Assembly (NCBI RefSeq): GCF_050624435.1
Contig: NC_134539.1
Location: 119,023,525-119,087,524, forward strand
Direction of reading: 5' to 3'
Origin: Tenrec ecaudatus
Taxonomy: Eukaryota; Chordata; Mammalia; Afrosoricida; Tenrecidae
DNA length: 64,000 bases
The notes beneath the pieces were generated by a model. That model did not search any database and was not told the DNA's origin. It saw only the letters and a program-made list of their open reading frames with translations. Numbering within the stretch: position 1 is the first letter of the stretch; every line of letters starts with the position of its first letter. Of the stretch, positions 803-62,540 are shown in pieces. The position numbers and the translations under genes were made by a program.

Positions 803-1185
803 TCAACAGGGCTGATTGGACCCTCATTGGGCTGTTTTCTTGTAACAGGCAAATACGATTAAAACAGTCTTTATTTTATTGGGAAATGCAAAAAACAAAA
901 TTAGCACAGTTCTAATTTCATAAAATGACAGACTAATTTTGTTTTTCAAAGAAATAAAATGGTGTTTATCATTTTTATTTTATTTATTTTTCAGCTTCAA
1001 GTAGTTATTTATTTTTAAAACATTTCATCTCTCTAGAATAATTACATTGGTACTAAATTTCTTTTAAAATTTATTTATTTATTTTGGTGTTTATCATTTT
1101 CAAAAGTTTTAATCTCCATCCTTGCTGCTGAAAAATTACTCGTTATGTCACCCTTTAAAAAGAAATATTATTTTACTTATTTATT
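1..1185. other. A/T-rich non-coding stretch, no gene seen
   Basis: This is A/T-rich sequence with no open frame longer than about 60 codons and no splice-flanked exon that I recognise. It includes short direct repeats of an atttaatattt type near 625-705 and a GA microsatellite. The T-rich part at 960-1130 may be decayed LINE or SINE sequence, but I cannot assign it. Confidence 0.5.
761..800. repeat. (GA)n microsatellite
   Basis: About 40 bases of uninterrupted GA dinucleotide repeat, likely length-polymorphic. Confidence 0.95.
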
Positions 1186-1200
1186 TTAAAATAAAATTTT

Positions 1201-1822
1201 GTTGGGGGCTCTTAGAGCTCTTATAACTATCCATACATCAATTGTATCAAGCATATTTGTACATATGTAGTCACCATCACTTTCTGAACATTTTCTTTGT
1301 TTGAGCCCTTGGCATTAACTCCTCTTTTTTCCCTCCTTTCCCCCACCCTCCTACTCTTGTGGATCCTTGATAATTATAAATCATTATTATTTTTATATCT
1401 TACATGACAAATGTCTCCCTTCACTCATGTTTCTGTTGTTTGTCCTCTTTGACGGGTGTATGTGTGGGGTTATATGTAGATCACTGTCACAGTTTTCTCA
1501 TTTTCTCCCCCTTTCCCCCCTACCCTCTTGGTATTGCTACTCCCATTTCTGTTCCTGAGCGGCTTATCTGTCCTGGATTCCATGTGTGGAGACCTCTTGT
1601 CTATACCAGTGTACATGTCCCTGTCCAGTCGGATTTTTAAGGTAGAACTGGGGTTGTGATATTGAAGGTGAGGAAGCCTCAAGGAACCAGAGGAATATTG
1701 CGTGCTTCATCAGTGCTATACTGCATCCTGGCTGACTCGTCCCTTCCTCCTGACCCTTCTGTGAGAGGATGTCCAATGGTCTACAGATGGGTTTTGGGTC
1801 TCCACTATGACCTCCCTTGTTC
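1201..1822 (-). mobile_element. 5'-truncated L1 3' end (afrotherian L1 family)
   Basis: Read on the minus strand this is the 3' untranslated end of an L1: a purine-rich G tract, an agttataagagctc-like segment and an A-rich end. Its flanks at 1186-1200 and 1823-1836 are near-identical (ttaaaataaaatttt and taaaaataaatttta), as expected for a target-site duplication. It shares family with the copies at 2291, 6449, 22810, 32308 and others. No ORF2 sequence is present. Confidence 0.8.
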
Positions 1823-6448: not shown

Positions 6449-7167
6449 GTATCGAAGGGATCAGGTATCGGGCATTATCAAAACAAAAAAATCATATCAT
6501 TGTGAATGAGGGGGTATGTGGAGTGGAGACCCAAAGGCCATTTGTGGGCAACTGGACATCCCCTTAAGAAGGGTTTCAGGGAGGAGACAAGCCAGTCAGG
6601 GTGACATGTAGCAATGATGAAACATACAACTTTCCTCTAGTTCCTAAATGCTTCCTCTCCCCCATATCATGATCCCAATTCTACCTTAAAAATCTGGCTA
6701 GACCAGAGGATGTATACTGGTACAGATAGGAACTGGAAACACAGGGAATACAGGACAGATGATCCCTTCAGGACCAGTGGTGTGAGTGGCGATACTGGGA
6801 GGGTGGAGGGAGGGTGGGTTGGAAAGGGGGAACCGATCACAAGGATCTACTTATAACCTCCATAACCTCCTCCCTGGGGGATGGACAACAGAAAAGTGGG
6901 CTAAGGGAGACGTCTGACAGAGAAAGATACGATAAAATAATAATTTATAAATTATCAAGGGCTCATGAGAGAGGGGGGAGGGGGGAGAGAGGGAAAAAAC
7001 GAGGAGCTGATGCCAGGGGCTTAGGTGGAGAGAAAATGTTTTGAGAATTAAAAGGGTAATGAATGTACAAATGTGCTTTACACAATTGATGTACGTATGG
7101 ATTGTGATAAGAGTTGTATAAGCCCCTAATAAAACAATAAAAAAGTAAAACACCAAAAAAAAAAAGA
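6449..7167 (+). mobile_element. 5'-truncated L1 3' end
   Basis: Sense-strand L1 tail ending in gcccctaataaaacaataaa and a poly(A). It is flanked by gaagatgccattctt (6434-6448) and gaaggtaccattctt (7168-7182), a 15-base target-site duplication with two differences. The frames it carries are not genes. Confidence 0.85.
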
Positions 7168-14524: not shown

Positions 14525-16105
14525 ATGGATTTAGACTGTCAAGAAATACATGCAAAGCATGCTTTCCTGAAAACACTTAACTTTGAACAAAGCACCAAAC
14601 TACACAAATGCAGAATGAAACAGCACTTCAACACCACCAAGAGCAGTCATCGTAAACGGTGTGAAGGTCACTTCACTTCGTCGCTGCGCTCTGCTCACTT
14701 TTAAACAGGAGACAGTTAAAACCAAATATTTCCCACAATCAATATCCCAACTCTAGGGCATGTTTCAGAAAGTCTTCAACTTCATGTTTTAAAGCGACGA
14801 GGAGAGTGTGATCGAGATCTGGAACGTGCTGAGTATCCTCCATGACTCTAGTAGGGAGAAGGTGATTGCCTTCTATCAATTTGATCCGGGTCTTGAGCGG
14901 CTGGCTCTCCATCCTCCTCCTGCACCACCGTCTCCTCTGTATGGTCTATGATACCAGTCCCGATCATCCTAACCTCAGTCGTACCCTCTCACAGTAGCCC
15001 CGACAGCGTGAACTGCCACAGGCAGGCCTATGCACCCCATATACTCCTAAGTACCAGGTGTCTGGCGTGTGTGCCCTCTTTGTTATGGAAAAAATCAACT
15101 CTGATCCTAGGCCATCAAGTGCCTTTCCATTGGCACGCTCGTTAGTTTCCTTAGCATCGCCTACAATTTCAAAACACACGAAGGCAAATCCTCCTGAATG
15201 CCTAGCCTGCTGGTCACATACACACAGCAGTGGGGCCATATTTAGAGTACACTTCTCTTAGGTCTCTTTCTGGGGTGTATAAGCTCAACCCAAATACTGC
15301 AAGACAGCAGTTGGGGTGAGGGTTTACTCGATTCCCATCAAGACGCCTGTGGATAGACAGGGGAGAATCTCTACTGTAAGAACTGCTACCGGACAGATAG
15401 GAACTGGAAACACAGGGAATTCAGGGCAGATGAGCCCTTCAGGACCAGCAGTGTGAGTGGCAATACTGGGAGGATTGAGGGAGGGTGGGTTGGAAAGGGG
15501 GAACCGACTACAGGGATCTATATGTGACTTCCTCCCTGGGGGACAGACAACAGAAAAGTGGGTGAAGGGAGACATCAGACAGGGCAAGAAATGACAAAAT
15601 AATAATTTATAAATTATCAAGGGTTCATGAGGGAGTGGGGGGGGGAGGGGAAAATAAGGAGTTGATGCAAAGGTCTTAAATGGAGAGCAAATGTTTTGAG
15701 AATGATGAGGGCAGTGAATGTACAGATGTGCTTTACACAATTGATGTATGTATGGATTGGGATAACAGTTGTATGAGCCCCTAATAAAATGATTAAAAAT
15801 AAATAAAACTGCTACCAGATCGTGGAACCGGACTGAGACGGAGATCTTGTGCAATGCCTTCGTGAACCTCTTCTGGATCTAGACCTAGATTCAGATCTGG
15901 ATCTGGACGTTCATATGGAAGGCCTGAGCTCTTCCTTGGAGCGAGACCTGGCAGATTCCCCAGATCCATGAGCACTCCCACCTCTGGGAGATGAACGGGA
16001 TTCCTGCTCTCCGTAGTCGCCCCTCCACGGGCTTCGTTGGAAGCCGTCAACACCCCGGGCCACAGCAGCTGCTTAGATCGCAGCTCTGAGAGCCGCTCAG
16101 AGATG
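14525..16105 (-). pseudogene. TRA2BP: TRA2B processed pseudogene, split by L1
   Basis: Minus-strand intronless copy of the splicing activator Tra2-beta (RS domain, RRM, RS domain). From 16010 to 15822 the first RS domain reads GEQESRS, SAHGSGESARSRSKEE, then SRSRSESRSRSRRGSRRHCT. After an L1 it resumes at 15392 with [14 protein letters not shown], then [20 protein letters not shown] and [10 protein letters not shown]. The RRM continues as DQQARHSGGFAFVCFE near 15210 and FSITKRAHTPDT near 15085. The C-terminal WRASRSRPGSN region lies near 14905. The match then runs through 3'UTR-like sequence (tgcatttgtgtagtttggtg, read on the minus strand near 14600). Stops and frameshifts are scattered. The GSSR linker after the RRM favours TRA2B over TRA2A as parent. 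Confidence 0.88.
15394..15806 (+). mobile_element. L1 3' end inserted inside the TRA2B pseudogene
   Basis: Sense L1 tail ending in cccctaataaaatgattaaa. Target-site duplication: aactgctaccgga at 15381-15393 and aactgctaccaga at 15807-15819, which are TRA2B-derived bases. It splits the pseudogene within the first RS domain. Confidence 0.87.
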
Positions 16106-16630
16106 ACACACTTGGCTCTCGCCCAAACGAGCTCATTTTTATCAAGGAATCATCCCTTCCCCCGAGTCCTCCCTGAGTGATGTACACTGGGTCCCTCAGG
16201 TCACTTCTTGCTGCTGTCTTTGTCGTTCCTCTCATCCTTCTACTTTTGGGCAGGTCCTCCTTGGTTCCCTGCAGGCCCTGGTTGTACCGGGCAGGGAACA
16301 GCCCAGAGGCCTCTATCTATGACCTGCATTCAAGACAGGGCTGCCCAGGGCTGGGCCTCTCCAGGATGGCACCCGCTGGTACATGTGCGCTGCCCCCAGC
16401 CTGACTCCTGTGCACAATCTCTCCTGTGCGTCCTGTCTCTTCCCCGACACCAGTTTGGGGCACCCACTGCTGCTCCTAACGTAGGCATTCATGAGCTCTC
16501 GAGAGAGCCCATGGGTGACCTGGGTGAAGCAGCAGGGAGATGCAGTGTGCACCTGGCCTGCGAGGGAACCAGAGCCACAGGGAACAGGCAGGAAGAAGCA
16601 GGGAGATGGCATCACTCAGAGTTGAAGGTT
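16106..16630. other. Non-coding, no gene recognised
   Basis: GC-richer unique-looking sequence. A 158-codon plus frame (16208-16684) is open, but I see no recognisable domain, splice context or promoter, and its codon use looks random. I would not annotate a gene here. Confidence 0.4.
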
Positions 16631-22809: not shown

Positions 22810-23399
22810 GAGCCCCTTTCAGCGGGGTCTAGGGGAGGAGATGAGTCAGTCAGGGTGCGATGTAGCACCGATGAAGAACACAGCTTTCCTCCAGTTCCTA
22901 AATGCTTCCCCCACCCCACTACCATGATCCGAATTCTACCTTGCAAGTCTGGATAGAGCAGAGGTTGTACACTGGTGCAGATAGGAGCTGGAGGCACAGG
23001 GAATCCAGGGTGGATGATACCTTCAGGGCCAGGGTGTGAGGGGCGATACTGGGAGAGTAGAGGGTGAGTGGGTTGGAAAGAGGGAACCTATTACAAGGAT
23101 CTACATGTGACCTCCTCTCTGGGGGACGGACAACAGAAAAGAGGGTGAAGGGAGACGCTGGACAGGGCAAGATATGACAAAATAATAATTTATAAATTAT
23201 CAAGGATTCATGAGGGAGGGGGGAACAGGGAGGGAGGGGAAAAAAAGAGGACTTGATGCCAAGGGCTTAAGTGGAGAGCAAATGCTTTGAAAATGATGAG
23301 GGTAAAGATGTACAGATGTGTTTTACACAATTGATGTATGTATATGTATGGATTGTGATAAGAGTTGTATGAGCCCCTAATAAAATGTTTTTTTTAAAA
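22810..23399 (+). mobile_element. L1 3' end with exact 16-base target-site duplication
   Basis: Sense L1 tail with gagcccctaataaaatg and an interrupted poly(A). It is flanked by identical gaaaatatcctatgaa at 22794-22809 and 23400-23415, which makes it one of the youngest insertions in the window. Confidence 0.93.
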
Positions 23400-23415
23400 G
23401 AAAATATCCTATGAA

Positions 23416-23954: not shown

Positions 23955-25990
23955 ACTTTTTAAAAGATCATGTTATAGGGGGCTCTTACAGCTCATATAG
24001 CAATCCACACATCAGTTGTATCAAGCATAGTTGTACACAGGTTGCCATAATCATTTTCTAGACATTTACTTTCTATTTGAGCCCTTGGTGTCAGCTCCTC
24101 CCCCTTACCCCATCCTCCTGATGCTTTGATAAATTATAATTATGTTTATATCTTGCACTGACCACTGTCTCCCTTCCCCTATGGTTTCTGTTGTTCATCC
24201 CCTGTGTGTGTGTGTGTGTCTGTGTGCGTGTGGTTATGTGTCGATCATTACAATCAGTTCCTTCTTTCTCGCCCCCCCCCCACTTTTCCCCTACCCTCCT
24301 GCTATTGATACTCCCATTTCTGTTCCTGAGGGGCTCATCTGATCTGGATTCCATGTTCTGTGTGTCCTGTGTCATAACCTCCAGTGTATATGCTCCGTTC
24401 TAACCCCCAGTAATGGCAGGACTGGGGTCACGATAGTGGGTGGGGCAGGGTGGGTGAGGAAACCTCAAGGAACCAGAGGAATATTGTGTGTTTCATTGGT
24501 GCTATACTTCACCTTGTTGACTCATTCCTTCCCCGTGACCCGTCTGTGAGGGGATGTCCCATTGTCTACAGATGAGTTTTGGGTCTCTCTATGACCCCTC
24601 TCATTCTCAACATTTTTTTTTGTTGTTGTTGGTTGGTTGGTTTGGGTCTTCTGATACCTGTTTCCTGATCTCCTTGACACCTTGTGATCCCACAAGCTGG
24701 TGTGCTTCTTCCGTGTGGGCTTGTTGCTTTTCTGCTAGATGGCCTCTTGTTTAACTTCAGGCCTTTAAGACCCAGATGCTATATCTTTTGATAGCTGAGC
24801 ACTGTCAACTTTTTTCATCACATTTGCTTGTGCACCCATTTTGTCTTCCTCGATTGTACCGGGAGGGTGAGTGTCACAGAATGCCAGGTTGTTAGAATAT
24901 GGTGTTCTTGTGTTGAGGGAAGGCTTGAGCAGAGGCCCAAAGTCCAACCACTACCTAAAGGCATTGCCATATAAATATATGTACATAGGCCAATACCTCT
25001 ATTTCTATGAATTAATATATTTACATATGTACATACCTATGTTTATACCTCTGTCCATAGCTTTGCTTCCTAGATCTTTCCTCTGTTTCCTTTTACCTTC
25101 TTCCTGTCCTACCATCATGCTCGCCCTTCTTCTGCCTCTTAGTAATTCCTCTCAGCTAGATTGCTGTTGCTCCAACACCCCCAAGATCTCTACATCCTCC
25201 TCATTGTTGATTTTAATTCTCCAGTTGTTCTCCTGTTTATGGTTGTGTTAGTGTGGGTAGACTAAAACAAATTCTTGGACACTCATATGAGTATAAAAAC
25301 ACTTTATATACAAGAACAGTTGAATATTGAGAAAATGTCCCAGCCCAGTCCAGATCAAGTCAATAAGTTTGATATTATCCCATATGTCTGATACCAATCT
25401 TTAAAGTCCTCTCCAGACTCACACAACACATGCAATGATGCCAAATGCAGGAAGATCACAGGCCAGTGGGTGCAAAGTCTTGTGGATCTAGTTGTGGTAG
25501 AAGCATCTCAGCGCTGGCAGGGGGCTCATGTGGTTCCTCCAGTTGCCAGGGCCTGGGGTCTATCAGTGTAGTGCCATGCATCTTGTCACTCAGGGAGTGA
25601 GCCTTGTCAGTAGATAGTCCCCAAGGAGGTAATACATCAGTTCCCAGAATCCTCAGGAGATGGTCATGTCCACACAGAGGCCTCATTGGCTATATCCTGA
25701 GTGATGGCTAGACTCCACCCCTACACTCTTAATTCCCAAATTGACACCAGATTATATAACCACCACAATGGTGCTATTTGCTCACTGCTCCCTTCCCCTC
25801 TGCCTCCTCCCTCCTCCAAGTTCCCCTGGAACAGTCAGTCCCATTGCTTTCTCCTCTGGCTTGCTCCCTGCCTATCTTACATAGGCAGGCAAATGAACAA
25901 CAGGGAGACAAAGAAAAAAGAAAACAGATGATTAAATAGAAAGAGAGAAATAAATATAAATAAATAGCAACAAAACAAAACAAATTAAGA
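23955..25990 (-). mobile_element. Longest L1 3' copy, interrupted by a solo LTR
   Basis: Antisense L1 tail running from ggggctcttacagctcatat near the 3' end, through ttcaggcctttaagacccag and the tatttacatatgtacatacc segment, to a pyrimidine-rich block and an A-rich end near 25980. The LTR at 25244-25767 lies inside it; without the LTR it is about 1.5 kb. It still contains no ORF2 sequence that I recognise, which bears on the family's structure. Confidence 0.75.
25244..25767 (-). mobile_element. Solo LTR, class III (ERVL/MaLR type)
   Basis: Fossil LTR of 524 bases with TGTG...CACA ends, flanked by 5-base direct repeats atggt (25239-25243 and 25768-25772). Five-base duplications are usual for class III elements. 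By analogy with other MaLR/ERVL LTRs the sense strand is the minus one. No internal retroviral sequence is attached, so it is a solo LTR left by recombination. It looks complete end to end and inserted into an L1 tail. Being inside a lineage-specific L1 makes it younger than that L1, so it dates within the afrotherian or tenrec lineage. Confidence 0.82.
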
Positions 25991-32307: not shown

Positions 32308-33374
32308 ACTAGGCGGCAGAGGGCATTTATAGAGGTCTAAATACAGGCATGTAGATGTGTAAATATATATAATGATAGGGAAATAGCTCTATATACATAT
32401 ATTTATAGGTTTAATATTAAGGTAGCAGACAGACATTGGGCCTCTACTCAAGTACTCCCTCAACACAAGAACACTTTGTTCTATTAACCTGGCATTCCAC
32501 GATGCTTACCTTCCTGACACGATCGCTGAAGACAAAGTAGGTGCATAAGCAAATGAGATGAAGAAAACTGATGGTTCCCGGCTATCAAAAGATATAGTGT
32601 CTGGGGTCTTAAAGGTTTGAAGATAAACAAAAGTCATCTAGTTGAGAAGCAACAAAACCCACACGGAGAAACCCACCAGCCTGTGTGGTCATGAGGTGTC
32701 AACAGGACCAGGTATCAGGCATCAAAGACCTAGAACAAAATATCATATCATTGTGAATGTGGAGGAGTGAGGAGTGGAGACCCTAAACCCATCTGTAGAC
32801 AATCGGACATCCCGTTACAGAAGGGTCACAAGGAAGAGATGAGTTGTACAGCCCCGATGAAACATAAAACTTTCCTCTGGTTCTTTAATGCTTCCCTGCC
32901 CCCAACTATGATGACCCCAAGTCTGCCTTACAAAGCCAGCTAGACGAGAACATGTACACTGGTACAGATCAGAGCTGGAAACACAGGGAATCCAGGACAG
33001 ATAACCCCTCAGGACCAATATTGAGCATAGCGATACCATGAAGTGTAAGGGTAAGGTGGAGGAAGAAAGGGGGAACTGATCACAAGGATCTACGTATAAA
33101 CCCCTTCCAGGGGGATGGACAACAGATAAGTGGGTTAAGGGAGACATAGATCAGTGTAAGTCATGGAAAAATAATAATTTATAAGTTATCAAGGGTTCAT
33201 GAGGGAGGTGGTGGGGGAGAGGAGGAATGGGGAACTGATACCAAGGACTCAAGTAGAAAGAAAATGTTTCGAAAATGATGATGGCAACAAATGTACAAAT
33301 GTGCCTCACACATGGATGGATGGATGGATATTGAAAAGAGTTGTACAAGCCCCCAATAAAATGATTTAAAAAAA
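32308..33374 (+). mobile_element. L1 3' end, about 1.07 kb, with target-site duplication
   Basis: Sense L1 tail from gcatttatagaggtctaaat to gcccccaataaaatgattta and poly(A). Flanks are ccaaaactgtagctgcca (32290-32307) and cccaaacctgtagctgcca (33375-33393). The pre-insertion site is unrelated sequence downstream of an AfroSINE. Confidence 0.9.
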
Positions 33375-35839: not shown

Positions 35840-37237
35840 TCAGGCATTCAGCTCCAGGCTGGTGACATACTCCTGGACCCAGGCCTCGCTGGGGTTGGCA
35901 CAGACTTGCCGGTTCTTTTTGGTTATGAAGCTGTGAAGGGGAGACAGAGGTTCAACACGGAGGGACCCGCAGGAGAATCTTGGGTGCACTGTGGCTCCCT
36001 AGTCCTTCCTTGTGAAGCTCAGGGCCTGCTCTCTTTCCCAGGGACCAGCTGCCCAGTTCAGTCTCGAAGCTTCACTTCCTGACTCATGGGGGTCCCCTTG
36101 AGAGGCTCTCACCACTTTCTTTCCATTTTCCTGTCTCGATGGGAAAGCCCGGCCCACTCTGGAAGCCCCTACCAGGCCAGAGCTCACAACAGAGGCTTCT
36201 GTGTGGAGCGTCTTTACTAGGTCCCCAGAGGATGGGGCCTTGTCAGAGGGCTGCACTGGCCTGTGTGTGCCCTTGGGGAGGCTCCCCGCCCAGTGCCTCC
36301 CTTGTTCCCCCAGAAGTGGGCAGGAAGACTGGTACTTACATGATGCCCGGCTCGGAGCACAGACTGTTGGTCTCGTAATAGTCGACCACAAATTTGCGCT
36401 GAATCTTCCGACTAGCATAGGCGAAGCAGCAGGCACTCGGGGTGTCGGCACCAGCTGTGGAGGAAGGGACGGAAGGAATCAGAGTCACGATTCAGAAGAA
36501 AAGGCAAGGCAGCTCTCTGGACCCCCTCAGAGGACGCTCCGAGGAAGACAATTTCACTCAAGGGTCAAGGTTGGAGGTCAAGGCCAGGGGAAGGCATTTG
36601 GGCCTTTTGGCCTGACACATTTTTCTGCCTCTTTCTTTGTTTCTGTCGTATTCTACTTTCTCTTTGAATTGCCATCTTGACTCTTAAAAAACAAAACAAA
36701 ACGTACTGACTTTATTTTGACTTTTTTATGGGATCCAGTATCCAAATAGACTATTCTCTTAGCTCGTCTCCCTCCAAGGGCATCGCATCAGGGTGGAGAG
36801 ATCATACCCCAGGCAAAGAGAAACCTTGGGCATCTCTCATAAGCGTCTCAGGGGCAGGCTCGAGGTAATCGATGGTGACTTCGTGGACGGATGACAACAC
36901 AAGGTAGTAACCCCCCAGGAACGCATTCATTTAGGCCGCCATTTTGCTTTCTGCAAAACGAGATGGTCATTTCCCTACCCCGCCATGATGCTCATGGTAG
37001 CTGAGGCCCAATGATGACGATGAACATGGAATCCTGAGCAGACGGGCTGAGGTGTTTTATAACCCTGTCCAGAGTTCTCTCTTTTCTCTTGGGACTCTCA
37101 GGCAGATCAACGGGGTCCAATCATGGCCAAGGAGAAGGGACAATCACACCCAGAGACTCACCTGGTGCTGAGAAGACCTGGGCACAGAGGGTCGCCAGGC
37201 AAAGGAGGCTGGCAAGGGCAACCACAGGGACCTTCAT
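35840..37237 (-). CDS. CCL3: CCL3 (MIP-1alpha) CC chemokine
   Basis: Encodes a secreted inflammatory CC chemokine of the MIP-1 group. Such proteins act extracellularly on CCR1 and CCR5 to recruit and activate monocytes, T cells and NK cells. Three coding exons are seen: 37237-37162, 36454-36340 and 35930-35840. All have GT/AG borders and consistent phases (1, then 2), giving 93 residues (human CCL3 has 92). Residues 1-23 or so form a signal peptide ([20 protein letters not shown]). The CC pair is at 34-35, with C58 and C74 completing two disulfides. The FVVDYYET core is at 47-54, a basic KKNR cluster (68-71) matches the family's BBXB heparan-binding site, and the C-terminal helix reads [13 protein letters not shown]. 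The neighbouring CCL4 is head to head, as in human, which favours CCL3 over CCL18 or other paralogs. The minus-strand TATA box is at 37351-37346. Confidence 0.92.
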
Positions 37238-38665: not shown

Positions 38666-39864
38666 GAGGGGACTTCCAAAAGTTTGCTGAAAAATAGAAT
38701 GAAATTTCTTTTTTTAAATCGTTTTATTAGGGGCTCATACAACTCTATCACAATCCATACATACATCAGTTGTGTAAAGCACACTTATACATTCATTGCC
38801 CTCATCATTCTCAAAACATTTGCTCTCCACCTAAGCCCCTGGCATCAGCTCCTCATTTTCCCCCCTCACTCCCCACTCCCCGCTCTCTCATGAACCCTTG
38901 ATAACTTATAAATTATTATTTTGTCATATCTCGCCCTGTCCAACGTCTCCCTTCACCCACCTTTCTGTTGTCCGTCCCCCAGGGAGGAGGTTATATGTAG
39001 ATCCTTGTAATTGATTCCTCCTTTTCAACCCACTCTCCCTTCACCCTCCCAATATTGGCACTCACACCACTGATCCTGAAGGGATCCTCCGCTGTGGATT
39101 CTCTGTGTTTCCAGTTCCTGTCTGTACCAGTGTACACCCTCTGGTCTTGCCAGATTTGTAAGGTAGAAATGGGATCATGATAGTGGGAGGGAGGGGAGGA
39201 AACATTTAGGAACTAGAAGAAAGTTGTATGTTTCATTGTTGCTACATCGCACCCTGACTGGCTCGTCTCTTCCCCCAGACCCTTCTGTAAGGAGATGTCC
39301 AGTGATCTACAAATGGGCTTTGGGTCTCCATTCTGCACTCCCCCTCATTCACAAGTATATGATTTTTTTGTTCTTTGATGCCTGATACCTGATCCCTTTG
39401 ACACCTCGTGATCCCACAGGCTGGTGTGCTTCTTCCATGTGGGCTTTGTTGCTTCTAAACTAGATGGCTGCTTGTTTACCTTCAAGCCTTTAAGACCCCA
39501 GATGCTATATCTTTTGATAGCCGGCCACCATTGGCTTTCTTCACCACATTTGCTTATTCACCCACTTTGTCTTCAGCGATTGTGTTGGGAAAGTGAGCAT
39601 CGTAGAATGCCAATTTAATAGAACAAAGTATTCTTGCATTGAGGGAGTACTTGAGTGAAGGCCAAATGTCCTTCTGCTACCTTAATACTAAACCTATAAA
39701 TATATGCCCATGGATCTATTTCCCCATCCTAATATATAAATATATTTACATATTGTACATGCCTTTATTTAGACCTCTATAAATGCCCTTTGCCTCCTAA
39801 CTCTTTCCTCTATTTCCTTTGACTTTAGAATGGAATTTTTCTATGAACTTTTCCAAGTACCCTC
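38666..39864. mobile_element. Short mariner MITE split by an L1
   Basis: The left end (gaggggacttccaaaagttt) and right end (ctatgaacttttccaagtac, then cctc) are inverted repeats of one short mariner-type element. Joined they would span about 80 bases with no coding capacity. The L1 at 38709-39825 inserted in the middle. A second copy of the family is at 49840-49910. Confidence 0.7.
38709..39825 (-). mobile_element. L1 3' end, about 1.1 kb, inside a mariner MITE
   Basis: A well preserved antisense L1 tail, from poly(T) and aatcgttttattaggggctc to tcctctatttcctttgactt. Direct repeats atagaatgaaatttc (38694-38708) and tagaatggaattt (39826-39838) are mariner-derived. It is a good reference copy for the family's 3' region. 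Confidence 0.9.
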
Positions 39865-47138: not shown

Positions 47139-48473
47139 ATGAAGCTCTGCGTGGCTGTCCTCTCTCTGCTTGTGCTGGTGGCTGACTTCTGCTCTCCCGT
47201 CCTCAGCGCACCAAGTAAGTCCTCCCTTCCACCTAGGATTTCTAGAGTCAGGATTTATGCCAAGCCCACGACTCTAGTCGGGGTTGGTCTTCATCCAACA
47301 GTGGGACTTGAAGATGGAGCAAAAGGGAACTGAAGGATTCGAGATAGACTTCTGTTAACTGTAAATTAACTGGTAGACATTGAGTCACATTCAAGTGGCT
47401 GGGTGTGGACATATTGTTTTATTCGAGAAAAAAACGTTGAGACTAAGAAAGCCAGGCAGAATAATCGGCTACTTGATCAAATCTAGATCTCCCCATTTGT
47501 GAAACAAAGGGAGCTGGACATTAGCACTGAGATTCAATCTAAATCCAATCTTTCAGATGTCTTCCATGGGAACCTCTAGTCAGTAAGACTCCCACTCAGG
47601 GTACGTGAGATCATGTAGGAGACCAACCGTGTTTAGGGTTCTGGTGGCGCCAGAGGAACGTTGACAAATGAGCAGCTCACGTGAAATGCGTGGCTCCCTC
47701 CCCTTTCTCCTCAGTGGGCTCCGACCCTCCGACTGCCTGCTGCTTCTCCTATACCCTGCGGCAACTTCCTCGGAACTTTGTGATGGATTACTACGAGACC
47801 AGCAGCCTCTGCTCTAAGCCAGCTGTGGTGTAAGTATCTCCGGGAGGTGAGGGCAGAGGCAGGAGGATCGGAAAGGCCCAAGCAACAGGGAAGTGAGCCC
47901 TCTGAGCAGAAGCCCTGTTGTCCAGGGAGCAGTGCTGACATAGGTCACATGGGGGGGCTTTTTGAGTCCCGTGGGGGCGGGAAAGAGTCAAGGGAGCAGA
48001 AGGGCTTCCTGAAGAGAAGTTAACCACGGGTCAGGAAACTAGAAAAAGTGTTTTTAAAAGGTCACAGAGGTTTGAACTGATTTTTAAAAGTCATGCTGGA
48101 AAATGTGTAGAAAAGTCATTGCTCAGGTCAGTAGGAGATATTAATGGCAAGACTCACTGATATCCAGTTTAAGCAACCCTAAACCATCATTGAGTCCAAG
48201 GAGGAGAAGTTACGGGGAGTCTTACTTCAGTGTCACCCCTAGGACCTCCATCCACTAGAGCTGCCTTATGTGCGCCACCAAGGATGGTGTTCACATCGGG
48301 GAGACACAGGCTGCAGGCAGAGAAGAGCCCCAGATGTCCTCAGAGGTTCCTTGGGATTTTAACTTACCCACTTCTTTGTCCCCAGATTCCAAACCAGAAG
48401 GGGCAAGCAAATCTGTGCCAACCCCAGTGACCCCTGGGTCCAGGAGTACGTGGATGACCTGGAACTGAACTGA
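47139..48473 (+). CDS. CCL4: CCL4 (MIP-1beta) CC chemokine
   Basis: Encodes a secreted CC chemokine that signals through CCR5. Three coding exons: 47139-47214, 47715-47829, 48386-48473, with donors GTAAGT and GTAAGT and standard AG acceptors. Exon lengths 76, 115 and 88 give 92 residues plus stop, the human length. Signal peptide is about residues 1-23 ([20 protein letters not shown]). The mature protein starts near [20 protein letters not shown]. Cysteines are at 34, 35, 58 and 74. The [13 protein letters not shown] core is conserved. The basic cluster RRGK at 68-71 fits the family's GAG-binding BBXB site. The end reads [12 protein letters not shown]. Both splice phases match CCL3, as expected for tandem-born paralogs. 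The only in-frame start is the first ATG after the TATA-set leader. Confidence 0.97.
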
Positions 48474-51394: not shown

Positions 51395-51740
51395 CCCTGC
51401 TAGGAGAGTGAGGGAGGGGGAGGGGGCAGCGATGATAGGGATCTACATCTAAACTCCACCCTGGGGGATGGACAACAGAAAAGAGGGTGGAGGGAGATGC
51501 CGGACAGTGTAAGATATGACAAAATAATAATAATTTATAAATTATCAAGGAATCATGAGGGAGTGGCGAACAGGAAGGGAGGGGATAAAATGAGGAGCTA
51601 ATACCAAGGGCTCAAGCAGAAAGCAAATGTTTTGAGAATGATGATGGCAACAAATGTACACATGTGCTTGATACAATGGATCTATGTATGGATTGTGATA
51701 AGAGTTGTATGAGCCCCAAATAAAAAATATAAAAAATAAT
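51395..51740 (+). mobile_element. L1 3' end
   Basis: Sense L1 tail: gatgataggga to tctacatctaaac, ccaagggctcaagcagaaag, gagttgtatgagccccaaat and an A-rich end. Confidence 0.8.
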
Positions 51741-51950
51741 AAAGAAATGTGAAATGTGCAAAGGAGAAAAAAAAGCACCACATTAGAAGTTGGCGGAGAA
51801 ATGAGTCTTCGCCTACAGCCTCTGCAGACAGTGTGGCCTTGATAACACCTTGCTGTTTGGCTCATTGAAAATGGTGGTGGACTTTGAGTTTCCAAACAGG
51901 AGGGAACAAATGTATGTCACTTAAACTCTCAGCTTTGTCACTTGTCTTAG

Positions 51951-54969: not shown

Positions 54970-55260
54970 TATTCTTCTCTCTGTGTGTCTGTCTAGACAA
55001 GATAGGTGAGATAAATAATACAAAGGAGAAAATAACGGGTCTGATGTTTCTAGGGGCAAAACAGGAGAGGGTAACGTGGGGGAAAAGAAATGGGTTTTAA
55101 CAAACCCAGAGACAAGGGAACAACAAATGATCTAAACTATATGGCAAGGAGGGTGTAGGACGCTTGGTAGGGCTTGATCAAGGATCATGTAACCAAGAGG
55201 AAATACTGAACCCAAATGAAGGCTGAGCGTGATAGTGGAAGAAGAAGAGAATAAAAGAAA
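54151..55260. other. Non-coding, no gene recognised
   Basis: A/T-rich unique-looking sequence with a GT microsatellite. No exon was identified. Confidence 0.4.
54934..54967. repeat. (GT)n microsatellite
   Basis: About 17 uninterrupted GT units. Confidence 0.95.
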
Positions 55261-55276
55261 ATCAAGAAATAACTGG

Positions 55277-56350
55277 GAGGCAAAGGCCATTATAGAGGTC
55301 TAAATACAGGCATGTGCATATGCAAATATATTTATATATAATGATTGGAAAATAGATCCATGTACATCTATTTAAATATTGAGTATTAAGGTAGCAGATA
55401 GACATTGGGCCTCTACTCAAGTACTCCTTCAATGCAAGAACACTTTGTTCCAATAACCTAGCATCCCATGATGCTCACCTTCCTGACATGATCGCTGAAG
55501 ACAAAATGGGTGCATAAGCAAAGGTGGTGAAGAAAGCTGATGATGGCCAGTTATCAAAAGATATAGCATATGGAGTCTTAACCTCTTGAAGAAAAACAAG
55601 CAGCTATGAGGCTGAGAAGCAACAAAGTATACGAGGAAGTAGCCCACCAGCCTGTGTGATCGTGAGGTGTTGATGGGATCAGGTATCAGGCATCAAAGAA
55701 CAGAACAAAAAAATCATATCCATGTGAATGAGGGGAGTTCATAGTGGGGACCAAAGCCCATCTGTAGACTATTGGAGCTCCCCTACAGAAGGGTCACAAG
55801 GAAGAGATGAGCCAGTCAGGGTACAGCCAAGCACCAATGAAACATACAAGTTTCCTCTAGTTCTTTAGTGCTTGCCTCTCCCCACCCACTATCATGACCC
55901 CAATTCTACCTCACAAATATGTCTAGACCAGAGCATGTACCTGGGTACAGATAAGAGCTGGATACACAGGGAATCCAGCACAGACAAAACCCTCAGGACC
56001 CATATTGAGAGTAGCAATAACAAGAGGGTAAGGGTAACTTGGGGGAAGAAAGGGGGAACTGATCACACATATAACCCCCTCCCAGGGGGGTGGATAACAG
56101 AAAAGTGGGTGAAGGAAGGCAGTGGTCAGTGTAAGACATGAAATAATAATAATAATTTACAAATTATCAAGGGTTCATGAAGGAGGGAGGGTGGGTAAAA
56201 ATGAGGAGCTGAAACCAAGGGCTCAAGTGGAAAGAAAATGTTTTGAGAATGATGAGGGCAAAAAACGTACAAATGTGCTTGACACAAGGAATATATGTAT
56301 GAATTGTAATAAGAGTTGTATGAGCGCCAATAAAATGATTTTCAAAAAAG
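55277..56350 (+). mobile_element. L1 3' end, about 1.07 kb
   Basis: Sense L1 tail from ggccattatagaggtctaaa to gagcgccaataaaatgattt. Candidate imperfect direct repeats are tcaagaaataactgg (55262-55276) and gaagaaaaaaactgg (about 56354-56368). It shares its 5' truncation point, within a few tens of bases, with the copy at 32308. Confidence 0.85.
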
Positions 56351-56459
56351 GATGAAGAAAAAAACTGGTGCAAGAGGAAAAGTAGAGGCAACTAAGCGAG
56401 ACACAGAGGTGAGAGCAGTTCCCTTGTATGACTCAGTAGTGTTCCAGCTCAGACAAGGT

Positions 56460-58874: not shown

Positions 58875-59396
58875 TTTTTTTTAATAAATCATTTTATTAA
58901 AGGCTCATACAACTCTTTAAAAAATAACCATTTTCTTAGGAACTCATACAATCATATCATAATTCATATATATACATCAATTGTGTAAAGCATATTTGTA
59001 CATTCATTGCCCTCATCATTCTCAAAACATATATTCTCCAATTAACCCCTGACATTAGCTCCTCATTTCCCCCCTCATTCCCCATTCCCCCCTCCCTCAT
59101 GAACCCTTGATATTTTATAAATCATTAGTTGGTCATATCTTACACTGCAAGATGTGTCCCTTCACCCAATTTTCTGTTCTGTCCACAAGCAAGAAGTTAT
59201 ATGTAGATCCTTGTAATAGGTACCCTCTCCCCCCGCCACCTCCCCCCTCCTGGACCCTAGCTCCACCCTCCTGGTATTGCCTCTCTCACCACTGGCCCTG
59301 AAGGAATCATCCGCCCTGGATTCCTTGTGGGATCCAGTTCCTATCTGTACCAGTGGACATCCCCCGGTCTAACAGATTTGTAAGGTAGAGATGGAG
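58875..59396 (-). mobile_element. L1 3' end with target-site duplication
   Basis: Antisense L1 tail from poly(T) and aatcattttattaaaggctc to acagatttgtaaggtagaga. Flanked by ccctcctgtctg at 58863-58874 and 59397-59408. Its first 70 bases look like two L1 ends in a row (a second accattttcttaggaactca start), so it may be a nested or 5'-inverted insertion. Confidence 0.85.
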
Positions 59397-60403: not shown

Positions 60404-60410
60404 TATAAAT
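60404..60410 (+). promoter_or_regulatory. TATA box of the WAP gene
   Basis: TATAAAT in cgggggtataaatcgg, 49 bases before the ATG. Transcription should begin near 60433-60438, leaving a leader of about 15-20 bases. Confidence 0.75.
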
Positions 60411-60452: not shown

Positions 60453-61280
60453 ATGAAGACAGGCATGGTTTTTCTTCTGGTGGTTCTCATCGGCCTGGGC
60501 ATGGAGACGGACTGTGTGAACAGCCTTTCCTCGGAAGGTGACTATGCTGAGGGCATCTCTAGCTGAGAGCAGACATGGCTCAGGCTAGCCTTAGACTGAG
60601 GATGATTTGCCAACAGAAGCAGGAATGGAGATTTGGTAGAGGCCTGACACACATTCTCTGAGCTGCGTGCCCGGTCAATCTCCTGATTAGATTTGGTTGG
60701 GTCTGGGCAGATGTTGAAGGGAGCGAAGGCTCTGTTCTGTGGTCAGGACATGTGTGCTGGGCACAGGACTGTCCAGGGGAGCAGCTCCAGGAGGAACCTG
60801 GGCATGTGTGGGGATGGAGCGATGGTGGTCTGGGGTCAGAGGGAATACAACACCTTCTTATGAAGAAGTGCAAAGGCCGGGGTGATGTGGGTGCAGATTT
60901 CTCATCTTGAGATTCTAAAGCCTTTGTAGCAAGGAAAAGTTTGGCTTGGAAATCGGGGTTTCCAAATGAGGATGGAATGACTGAGGCTGCAGGAAGCACT
61001 CAGGAGCATGCAAGAAGAAATGGAAGAGGCTGATGTCCCATCAGTTATGTGTGCTTCTGACCTCCAGCGTCTGTTTCCTTCTCTGTCCTAGTAACCATTC
61101 AGGGCTGCAAAAAGACGATTTTATATTTCAGGGCGACAAAGACCTGGACGCTGTCCAAAGGTGTCACCAGGAAGTGTTGGGATTTGTGCTGACATGTGTT
61201 CCAGGGATGATGACTGTCCCAGAGGAAATAAATGCTGCAGCAATGGGTGTGGCCATGTCTGCAAACGTCCTGTTTTCTGA
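60453..61280 (+). CDS. Secreted single-WAP protein, Wfdc17/18/21 (WDNM1)-like
   Basis: Two coding exons, 60453-60537 and 61132-61280, joined in phase 1, give 77 residues. Residues 1 to about 20 (MKTGMVFLLVVLIGLGMETD) are a signal peptide. After a short linker comes one WAP four-disulfide core. It starts GRCPKVSPGSVGICADMC and ends CCSNGCGHVCKRPVF. All eight cysteines are at 36, 47, 51, 57, 63, 64, 68 and 72. The KPVF-like end and the exon split just before the WAP domain are typical. Rodent Wfdc17, Wfdc18 (Expi) and Wfdc21 have this length and design and lie beside Ccl3/Ccl4, so homology is well supported. Which one it is orthologous to cannot be told. The family is secreted, and some members bind or inhibit proteases, but the inhibitory activity is uncertain for this group. 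Note that the longest open frame in exon 2 is a different, wrong frame. Confidence 0.9.
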
Positions 61281-61284
61281 GTAA

Positions 61285-62282
61285 GTATAAGTCCATCAAG
61301 AGATGCCCTAGAGGGAGACAAGATTGTGCTGGACTTTGCTCCAAGAGAAAGGGACTGGAAGCAAATGTCATCAGAAAGATTCTAGTGGCTTCATCTAAGC
61401 CCCCCACCCCCATCCCAGAGAGGAAGCGGCATCCCCAGCTAGTCGGAGAGGACCGGTAGAGAGGAATCCATGATCCTGCAGTCACAGGATTACTAGTCCC
61501 CAGGAGTTCTCGGCTGCCTCCTTTCCTCTTGCTACCAAGGGGCCAAGCATCATGCTTACCCGTCCTGGAGAGTGTGTGATCCTGGAGCAAAGCAAGGAAG
61601 ACTCATGCACTCACCATTTCCTATACCAGCCAGACAGCCGCTGATGTAAACTTGAAAAGAAAAATTAAATTCCACATTTCAGGGAGCCGGGTTCATATCA
61701 GTAATTACAACCTAGTGGAAAGACTGTTTAGTACAAATTTATCATATGGTCAGTGAGAGCACTGAGAAGGGTCATTCGTTTTGCATGGGTGTTTTGGACA
61801 GGTTGTCAGGAGAGGGGAGTGTTTAGAGAAGGGCCTTAAAGGATGCTTAAAGTTGACAAGTAAGAGGAAGGTAGTCTCCGTGTTTCCCGCACTGGGATGA
61901 CACCTCCCTGGGATGGCGTGGGAGGTGGGGGTGCTGGAAGAATCAGGGGAGGAGGAGGGGTGGCACAGCAAAGCAGATATCTGCACTTGACCCTGTGAAT
62001 GGGGATATAGGACAAGTTTTTCATTCCCAAGGGGGTGCACAGGACTGTTTTTCTCTGAAAATGGGGGCGGCAGGTCAAACAAGGTGGGAAGTCTATGGGA
62101 GAGGAGAGAATGAGAATTGAACCCCTCTTTGAAGATGACTGTGGATCAGAGGGTCATGGAGGCCCCATCGTGTGTCTATTAAGCCAGAATACAGAGCAAG
62201 GAGCAGCCTGCGAGAGAGACTGACTGACTAGCTGTCGGAGGTTTTGAGCAGAGGGCATGTCATGGTCCACTTTGTATTTCAG
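61285..62282. other. Second intron of the WAP gene
   Basis: Runs from the donor after the stop codon to the 3'UTR exon. A 163-codon minus frame overlaps exon 2 (61590-61099) and is a shadow. No repeat is obvious, and the sequence looks unique. Confidence 0.55.
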
Positions 62283-62540
62283 AATGGTGTTCCTGGAGGC
62301 CCTGGGGATGACAGAGGGAACTTTCATTAACCCTGCGTGATGACCAGCCACAGAAGATGCTCATAAATCCATGAATTCCATGTGTGGCATTACAAGACCC
62401 CCTTCACACTCCATTCCTGACCATTCCTTCTCCTTGACCTTGCACCCCTAAAAGAAGAAGAGCTATAATGGGCTTGTTTCCAAAATAGAAGATGAATACC
62501 TAATAAATGTGTGTTCAAATAAACTCTGTCTATGGCATTA
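62283..62540 (+). other. 3'UTR exon of the WAP gene with poly(A) signals
   Basis: The stop codon TGA is followed directly by a consensus donor (tga then gtaagt), so a non-coding last exon is expected. A good acceptor (ccactttgtatttcag) ends at 62282. The exon then contains two AATAAA signals (62502-62507 and 62518-62523), with cleavage likely just after about 62540. The last exon being wholly untranslated is a known arrangement in WAP genes. Confidence 0.72.

What the first reader, a model, noticed from the sequence alone, without database searches (positions are those of the whole stretch)
60453..62540. Intact WAP (WDNM1-like) gene beside CCL4 in an afrotherian
A two-coding-exon gene with all eight WAP cysteines, a signal peptide, a TATA box, consensus splice sites and a poly(A) signal lies 12 kb past CCL4. 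In mouse, Wfdc17/18/21 occupy the same neighbourhood, while in human the family survives, as far as I know, only as the non-coding WFDC21P. An intact afrotherian copy in synteny would mean the gene is ancestral to placentals and was lost in primates, not a rodent invention. I saw only one copy here, against several in mouse.
Basis: partly seen in the sequence, partly recalled or inferred. Interest (0 to 1): 0.8.

Follow-up and report, generated by a model that had tools for sequence, protein, structure and literature searches.

The report
Ordinary WFDC18-type WAP gene beside CCL4
This is an intact gene for a small secreted, disulfide-rich defence-type protein next to chemokine genes; close relatives are already recorded in elephant, manatee, cow, bat, camel and rodents, so it is an expected mammalian gene rather than a discovery.

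Summary
A 77-residue WAP protein is encoded at 60453-60537 plus 61132-61280, 12 kb past CCL4, with all eight WAP cysteines (Pfam WAP 1.5e-12), GT-AG introns, a TATA box and poly(A) signals. The gene is of the 8-cysteine WFDC18/EXPI (WDNM1) type, not the 6-cysteine Wdnm1-like/WFDC21 gene whose human relic is WFDC21P. Relatives are already in databases for elephant (two), dugong, manatee, ruminants, camel, bats, carnivores, pangolin, tree shrew and many rodents. For the other gene, Dijkstra & Ballingall 2014 (PMC4184305, whole text) report intact Wdnm1-like in elephant, tenrec, aardvark, armadillo and the non-human primates examined, broken only in Homo. 'Ancestral to placentals, not a rodent invention' is thus right but known; 'lost in primates' is wrong for WFDC21 and untested for WFDC18. 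One small extra: the stop is the last codon of exon 2, and exon 3 still carries a frame of the length of the coding tail in camel and cattle, so exon 3 probably once coded. The tree alone does not settle the assignment, and the host's afrotherian identity was not confirmed.

The parts
60404..60409 (+). TATA box
   Evidence: TATAAA found by script
60453..60537 (+). coding exon 1: signal peptide and start of mature protein
   Evidence: ATG; most hydrophobic 11-residue stretch is residues 5-15; donor AAG|GTGACT
60538..61131 (+). intron 1, phase 1, GT-AG
   Evidence: two other AGs just upstream (exon starts 61092 and 61103) would shift the frame
61132..61280 (+). coding exon 2: 8-cysteine WAP domain; TGA stop is its last codon (61278-61280)
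   Evidence: Pfam WAP 1.5e-12, residues 32-75 of the spliced product; AlphaFold2 mean pLDDT 80.3; Foldseek best PDB match the half-SLPI of 4doq, E 4.4e-3, TM 0.73
61281..62282 (+). intron 2, GT-AG, directly after the stop codon
   Evidence: donor TGA|GTAAGT, acceptor TTTGTATTTCAG|AA
62283..62540 (+). exon 3, now 3'UTR, with two AATAAA signals (62502, 62518)
   Evidence: 3' end position approximate
62283..62330 (+). 15 sense codons plus TAA at the start of exon 3: likely remnant of an ancestral coding tail
   Evidence: same length as the tail beyond this point in 9 of 100 database proteins parsed (ruminants, camel, three bats); scored against such tails it ranks 2 of 217 (six tails) or 1 of 217 (all seven distinct tails of that length) AG-preceded frames of that length in the window
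47714..48470 (+). CCL4, coding exons 2-3 (syntenic anchor)
   Evidence: tblastn 87% and 75% to recalled human CCL4; joined product Pfam IL8 4.5e-22
35843..36452 (-). CCL3-type chemokine, coding exons 2-3, head to head with CCL4
   Evidence: tblastn; joined product Pfam IL8 3e-21

Best explanation
An intact single-WAP-domain gene of the WFDC18/EXPI (WDNM1) type, one of the WAP genes that sit near CCL4 in placental mammals. Shown: gene anatomy, WAP domain, family match. Inferred: the product is secreted by myeloid or epithelial cells and works as a host-defence protein. The stretch between the second and third cysteines is three residues, where elafin has eight including its elastase-binding segment (recalled), so canonical elastase inhibition is unlikely; inhibition of microbial subtilisin-type proteases (as in horse eNAP-2) and/or damping of NF-kB signalling (as in mouse AMWAP/WFDC17) is the likeliest mode, about 0.5. 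The third exon probably coded for a short tail in the ancestor and became 3'UTR through the stop at the end of exon 2. The confidence given is for identity as a WFDC18-type gene.
For: Pfam WAP. Full-length collinear match to mouse EXPI/WFDC18 (49%) and to WFDC18-type proteins of many placentals, 43-64% identity among the mammalian ones listed. Elephant (P0053, P0066), dugong (P0079) and manatee (P0082) proteins all pass Pfam WAP. C2-C3 spacing against recalled elafin in the alignment. WAP-like model. [quoted passage not shown] AMWAP is reported to inhibit NF-kB translocation (PMC4417279, passages); AMWAP is WFDC17 (PMC4650866, passages). Exon-3 remnant.
Against: The window protein is divergent: its end branch is 0.82 against a median of 0.2 (0, where the length sits on inner branches), and it departs from the family at 4 of the 9 nearly invariant columns that fall in exon 2. 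The AU test did not reject a clade of the window with the two 6-Cys rows; that tree was even slightly more likely (p 0.587). So the assignment rests on cysteine pattern, identity and gene anatomy, not on the tree. No transcript and no dN/dS test. One paper treats eNAP-2 as SLPI (PMC4647707, passages), which would weaken the eNAP-2 analogy. Foldseek E-values are weak (best 4.4e-3, none of 27 under 0.001).
Confidence: 0.85

Rival explanations
1. It is the orthologue of Wdnm1-like/WFDC21 (human WFDC21P, lnc-DC).
For: Same neighbourhood; same plan of two coding exons and a signal peptide (55% over the first 18 residues with recalled mouse WFDC21, E 0.44); the AU test does not reject grouping with the 6-Cys rows (p 0.587).
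Against: Recalled mouse WFDC21 and the two 6-Cys modules in rhino P0062 lack the first and one of the paired cysteines, the window keeps all eight; 35% against 49% identity; 0.83 kb coding span against 3.9 kb in elephant, 2.6 kb in aardvark and 4.3 kb in tenrec Wdnm1-like (computed from positions in PMC4184305).
Confidence: 0.07
2. A decaying gene: intact by chance but no longer under constraint.
For: Long branch; departures at 4 of 9 family-conserved sites in exon 2; lost coding tail.
Against: All eight WAP cysteines, both splice pairs, promoter and poly(A) signals intact; 23 of 100 database proteins parsed end at the same residue, 16 of them from rodents.
Confidence: 0.08

Closest known systems
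WFDC18 / EXPI / WDNM1 (extracellular peptidase inhibitor), with mouse Wfdc17/AMWAP
   Same: signal peptide plus one 8-Cys WAP domain, KCCSNGCGH core, CK.PVF ending as in mouse and rat, three-residue C2-C3 stretch, chemokine neighbourhood (mouse location of Wfdc17/18 recalled)
   Different: more divergent; four residues conserved in the family differ
Elephant G3UDN6 and G3U587, dugong and manatee WFDC18-like proteins
   Same: same length in elephant (77 aa), same domain, same family; 55-59% identity
   Different: the two sirenian models run on past this end, apparently into intron sequence (inferred)
Horse eNAP-2 (equinin)
   Same: RPGRCP start and KCCSN core; 58% over 38 residues to the recalled 46-residue fragment
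   Different: only a recalled fragment was compared; antimicrobial and antiprotease activity reported there, not tested here
Wdnm1-like / WFDC21 / human WFDC21P (lnc-DC)
   Same: WAP-derived gene of the same chromosomal region, two coding exons
   Different: six cysteines, longer intron; intact in the eutherians examined other than Homo (PMC4184305)

Membership tests
WAP / four-disulfide core | eight cysteines in WAP spacing, Pfam PF00095 above its cut-off | tested here: met
   48 bits against a cut-off of 20.8; 8 Cys
WFDC18/EXPI (WDNM1) type | signal peptide plus a single 8-Cys WAP domain with full-length similarity to WFDC18 | tested here: met
   signal peptide judged by hydrophobicity only
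WFDC18/EXPI (WDNM1) type | clusters with WFDC18 in a tree | tested here: inconclusive
   placed on the 8-Cys side of the split from 6-Cys rows (92/93, 88/89), but no starred set holds it and the AU test does not exclude the 6-Cys side (p 0.587)
WFDC18/EXPI (WDNM1) type | location between CCL4 and HEATR6 | tested here: inconclusive
   12 kb past CCL4; HEATR6 would lie beyond the window and the assembly could not be searched (genome search did not answer in ten tries)
Wdnm1-like / WFDC21 | six-cysteine derivative of the WAP domain | tested here: not met
   eight WAP cysteines
SLPI/elafin-type elastase inhibitors | long C2-C3 inhibitory segment | tested here: not met
   three residues against eight in recalled elafin
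eNAP-2-like microbial protease inhibitors | inhibition of subtilisin A and proteinase K | not testable with these tools
   needs recombinant protein

The most novel reading that the evidence does not exclude
Placentals began with two kinds of chemokine-linked WAP gene, an 8-Cys WFDC18 and a 6-Cys WFDC21, and humans lost them in two separate steps: WFDC18 on the primate line after the tree-shrew split, WFDC21 only in Homo. In this species, as in several rodents, WFDC18 also lost its third coding exon through a stop at the end of exon 2.
Probability: 0.4. Interest if true: 0.3.

Novelty: new member of a known kind. Interest (0 to 1): 0.12.

Why it matters
It adds one divergent, apparently unannotated member to a known innate-immunity gene family and corrects a name: the gene beside CCL4 here is not the one whose human relic is the lncRNA WFDC21P/lnc-DC. 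That matters to anyone using mouse Wfdc17/18/21 as models, because the two types may have different histories in primates.

Tried and rejected
Tried without result: search of the window's own assembly for further WAP copies and HEATR6 (ten tries, none answered). Protein search with the window sequence alone found no candidate; this says nothing about absence, because mouse entry P0001 shares five overlapping five-letter words with it and still was not a candidate. The searches with mouse EXPI and with an alignment succeeded. Rfam and tRNA scans were empty.

Literature searches for a statement on WFDC17/18 in primates or elephants gave none on point in what was listed: 0 papers; 15 of 21 listed; 7 of 7; 12 of 17; 15 of 529; 12 of 5,719; 0. 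Only listings and a few passages were seen, so no claim of absence from print is made. Considered and rejected: chance open frame; Wdnm1-like/WFDC21 (cysteine count, intron length). The weak chemokine-like hit at 16424-16570 was tested with Pfam and not supported.

The tail comparison used six tails that I had picked for their matching length and left out one more of that length; one search repeats it with all seven distinct tails of that length (rank 1 instead of 2 of 217). Tails of other lengths (some of them read-through models) were not scored.

The host's identity was tried through repeats. A dispersed repeat of up to 1.1 kb recurs through the window; it looked like an afrotherian element to me, but that is recall and no call supports it.

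Full report
What is there. Exon 1 codes from ATG 60453 to 60537, exon 2 from 61132 to the TGA at 61278-61280, and an exon-3-like stretch starts at 62283 and carries AATAAA at 62502 and 62518. A TATAAA lies at 60404. Donors and acceptors are GT-AG. The product is 77 residues, with a hydrophobic signal core and nine cysteines: eight in the WAP domain and one at residue 21 in the signal region. Pfam WAP scores 48 bits, E = 1.5e-12. The 8-Cys spacing occurs once in six frames of the window and 0 times in 100 first-order Markov simulations. An AlphaFold2 model of exon 2 with 33 relatives has mean pLDDT 80.3. Its best Foldseek matches in the PDB are WAP domains of SLPI, omwaprin and elafin, with modest E-values (best 4.4e-3; 0 of 27 matches reach 0.001).

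Neighbourhood. CCL4 lies at 47714-48470 on + and a CCL3-type gene at 36452-35843 on - (with recalled human proteins). Their hand-joined products match Pfam IL8 at 4.5e-22 and 3e-21. The WAP start is 12 kb past the CCL4 match. tblastn showed no second WAP exon in the window, but the window ends 1.5 kb past this gene, so copy number is not known. Elephant has at least two distinct proteins of this type (P0053, P0066).

Which family member. The mouse EXPI/WFDC18 sequence I recalled matches the window over its whole length at 49%, against 35% for recalled mouse WFDC21. The recalled EXPI sequence is 99% identical to a mouse database entry (P0001); the WFDC21 one was not checked against a database. 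Two 6-Cys modules in a rhino protein (P0062) share WFDC21's missing cysteines, and the same predicted protein ends in an 8-Cys module, a hint that both types lie close together in rhino. In trees of 39 and 36 rows the window falls on the 8-Cys side (support of the split 92/93 and 88/89). These used 30 of the 121 database proteins then held whole, plus pieces of two more; three long or partial rows (elafin, anosmin, one rhino module) were dropped between the two. Against this reading: no starred set holds the window, its end branch is long (0.82; 0, where the length sits on inner branches), and the AU test does not reject a clade with the 6-Cys rows, whose tree was even 0.72 log units better (p 0.587). 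The assignment therefore rests on the cysteines, the identity and the short intron. The window also departs from the family at 4 of the 9 nearly invariant columns that fall in exon 2. Whether it is closer to Wfdc17 or Wfdc18 was not resolved.

Already known. The alignment search gave 1055 proteins with E up to 1 among 1645 candidates, of which 120 were listed. The list names WFDC18, WFDC18-like, extracellular peptidase inhibitor or WAP-domain proteins from elephant, dugong, manatee, cattle kin, sheep, camel, several bats, pangolin, bear, panda, ferret, lynx, lion, tree shrew, mole-rats, squirrels and many mouse-like rodents, next to reptile, bird, fish and invertebrate WAP proteins. I saw no primate name among the 120 listed; the other 935 were not shown, so this does not prove loss. 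For the other gene, Dijkstra & Ballingall 2014 (PMC4184305, whole text without figures) report intact Wdnm1-like frames in elephant, tenrec, aardvark, armadillo, opossum and the primates examined, with a frameshift only in Homo and a changed N-terminus in Pan. A review (PMC3179947, passages) says WDNM1 is present in rats, mice and cattle and related to horse eNAP-2.

How it probably works. [quoted passage not shown] Mouse AMWAP (WFDC17; PMC4650866, passages) is reported to keep NF-kB out of the nucleus (PMC4417279, passages). The window protein has three residues between its second and third cysteines where elafin has eight (elafin recalled), which argues against elafin-like elastase inhibition. 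I therefore think it is a secreted host-defence protein acting on microbial proteases or on myeloid NF-kB signalling, at about 0.5; nothing here tests it. One paper equates eNAP-2 with SLPI (PMC4647707, passages), which conflicts with the WDNM1 link.

The lost tail. Of 100 database proteins whose end could be parsed, 9 (ruminants, camel, three bats) run exactly 16 residues past the position where the window stops, and 23 end at the window's own last residue: 16 from rodents, two from elephant, four from Myotis lucifugus and one from ferret (the last seven are UniRef entries and may be models cut at the exon end). The other 68 have other lengths. In the window the stop is the last codon of exon 2, and exon 3 begins with 15 sense codons and a TAA, which together with the stop codon's place makes the same 16. 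Of 9307 AG-preceded positions on both strands, 217 give 15 sense codons and then a stop. Scored against six tails that I picked for their length, the exon-3 frame ranks 2 of these 217; against all seven distinct tails of that length it ranks 1 of 217. So the third exon was probably coding in an ancestor, and the shortening may have happened more than once.

Species. I could not confirm that the host is afrotherian. The highest identity in the tree set is to a fruit bat (64%), and a clade with the four elephant and sirenian proteins is not rejected (AU p 0.251) and not found. The window's assembly could not be searched.

Verdict. A real, intact, probably functional WFDC18-type gene. No identical protein is among the 120 listed, so it is apparently not annotated in the searched sources. 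It is a new member of a known kind and of low interest.

Noticed in passing
window 1177-1816, 2286-2863, 6454-7148, 15393-15807, 22814-23404, 23956-25099, 32310-33374, 38705-39820, 51406-51743, 55254-56356, 58925-59389 and others: A dispersed repeat family of up to about 1.1 kb in roughly 13 copies on both strands, 68-85% alike in the 60 best pairs; the copy at 32310-33374 ends in AATAAAATG. Perhaps the 3' end of a lineage-specific LINE; it could identify the host clade if compared with a repeat library.
   Followed up: partly
window 62283-62330: Open frame at the start of exon 3 with the length of the coding tail of some other mammals' WFDC18 proteins, cut off by the TGA that ends exon 2.
   Followed up: yes
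window 16424-16570, minus strand: A weak chemokine-like stretch (SPCCF..., E 0.004 to recalled CCL5); Pfam finds no domain in it, possibly chance or a chemokine relic.
   Followed up: partly
P0062 (rhino, Diceros bicornis minor): One predicted partial protein strings two 6-Cys WFDC21-type modules and one 8-Cys eNAP-2/WFDC18-type module together, a hint that the two types are adjacent there and that the gene model is fused.
   Followed up: partly
P0082, P0052, P0081, P0073 (database proteins), perhaps P0079: These annotated WFDC18-like proteins seem to read through the exon-2 donor into the intron: their tails (VSIN.SR and alike) resemble the start of the window's intron 2 in the same frame (VSISPSR), so their C-termini are probably annotation errors.
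   Followed up: partly
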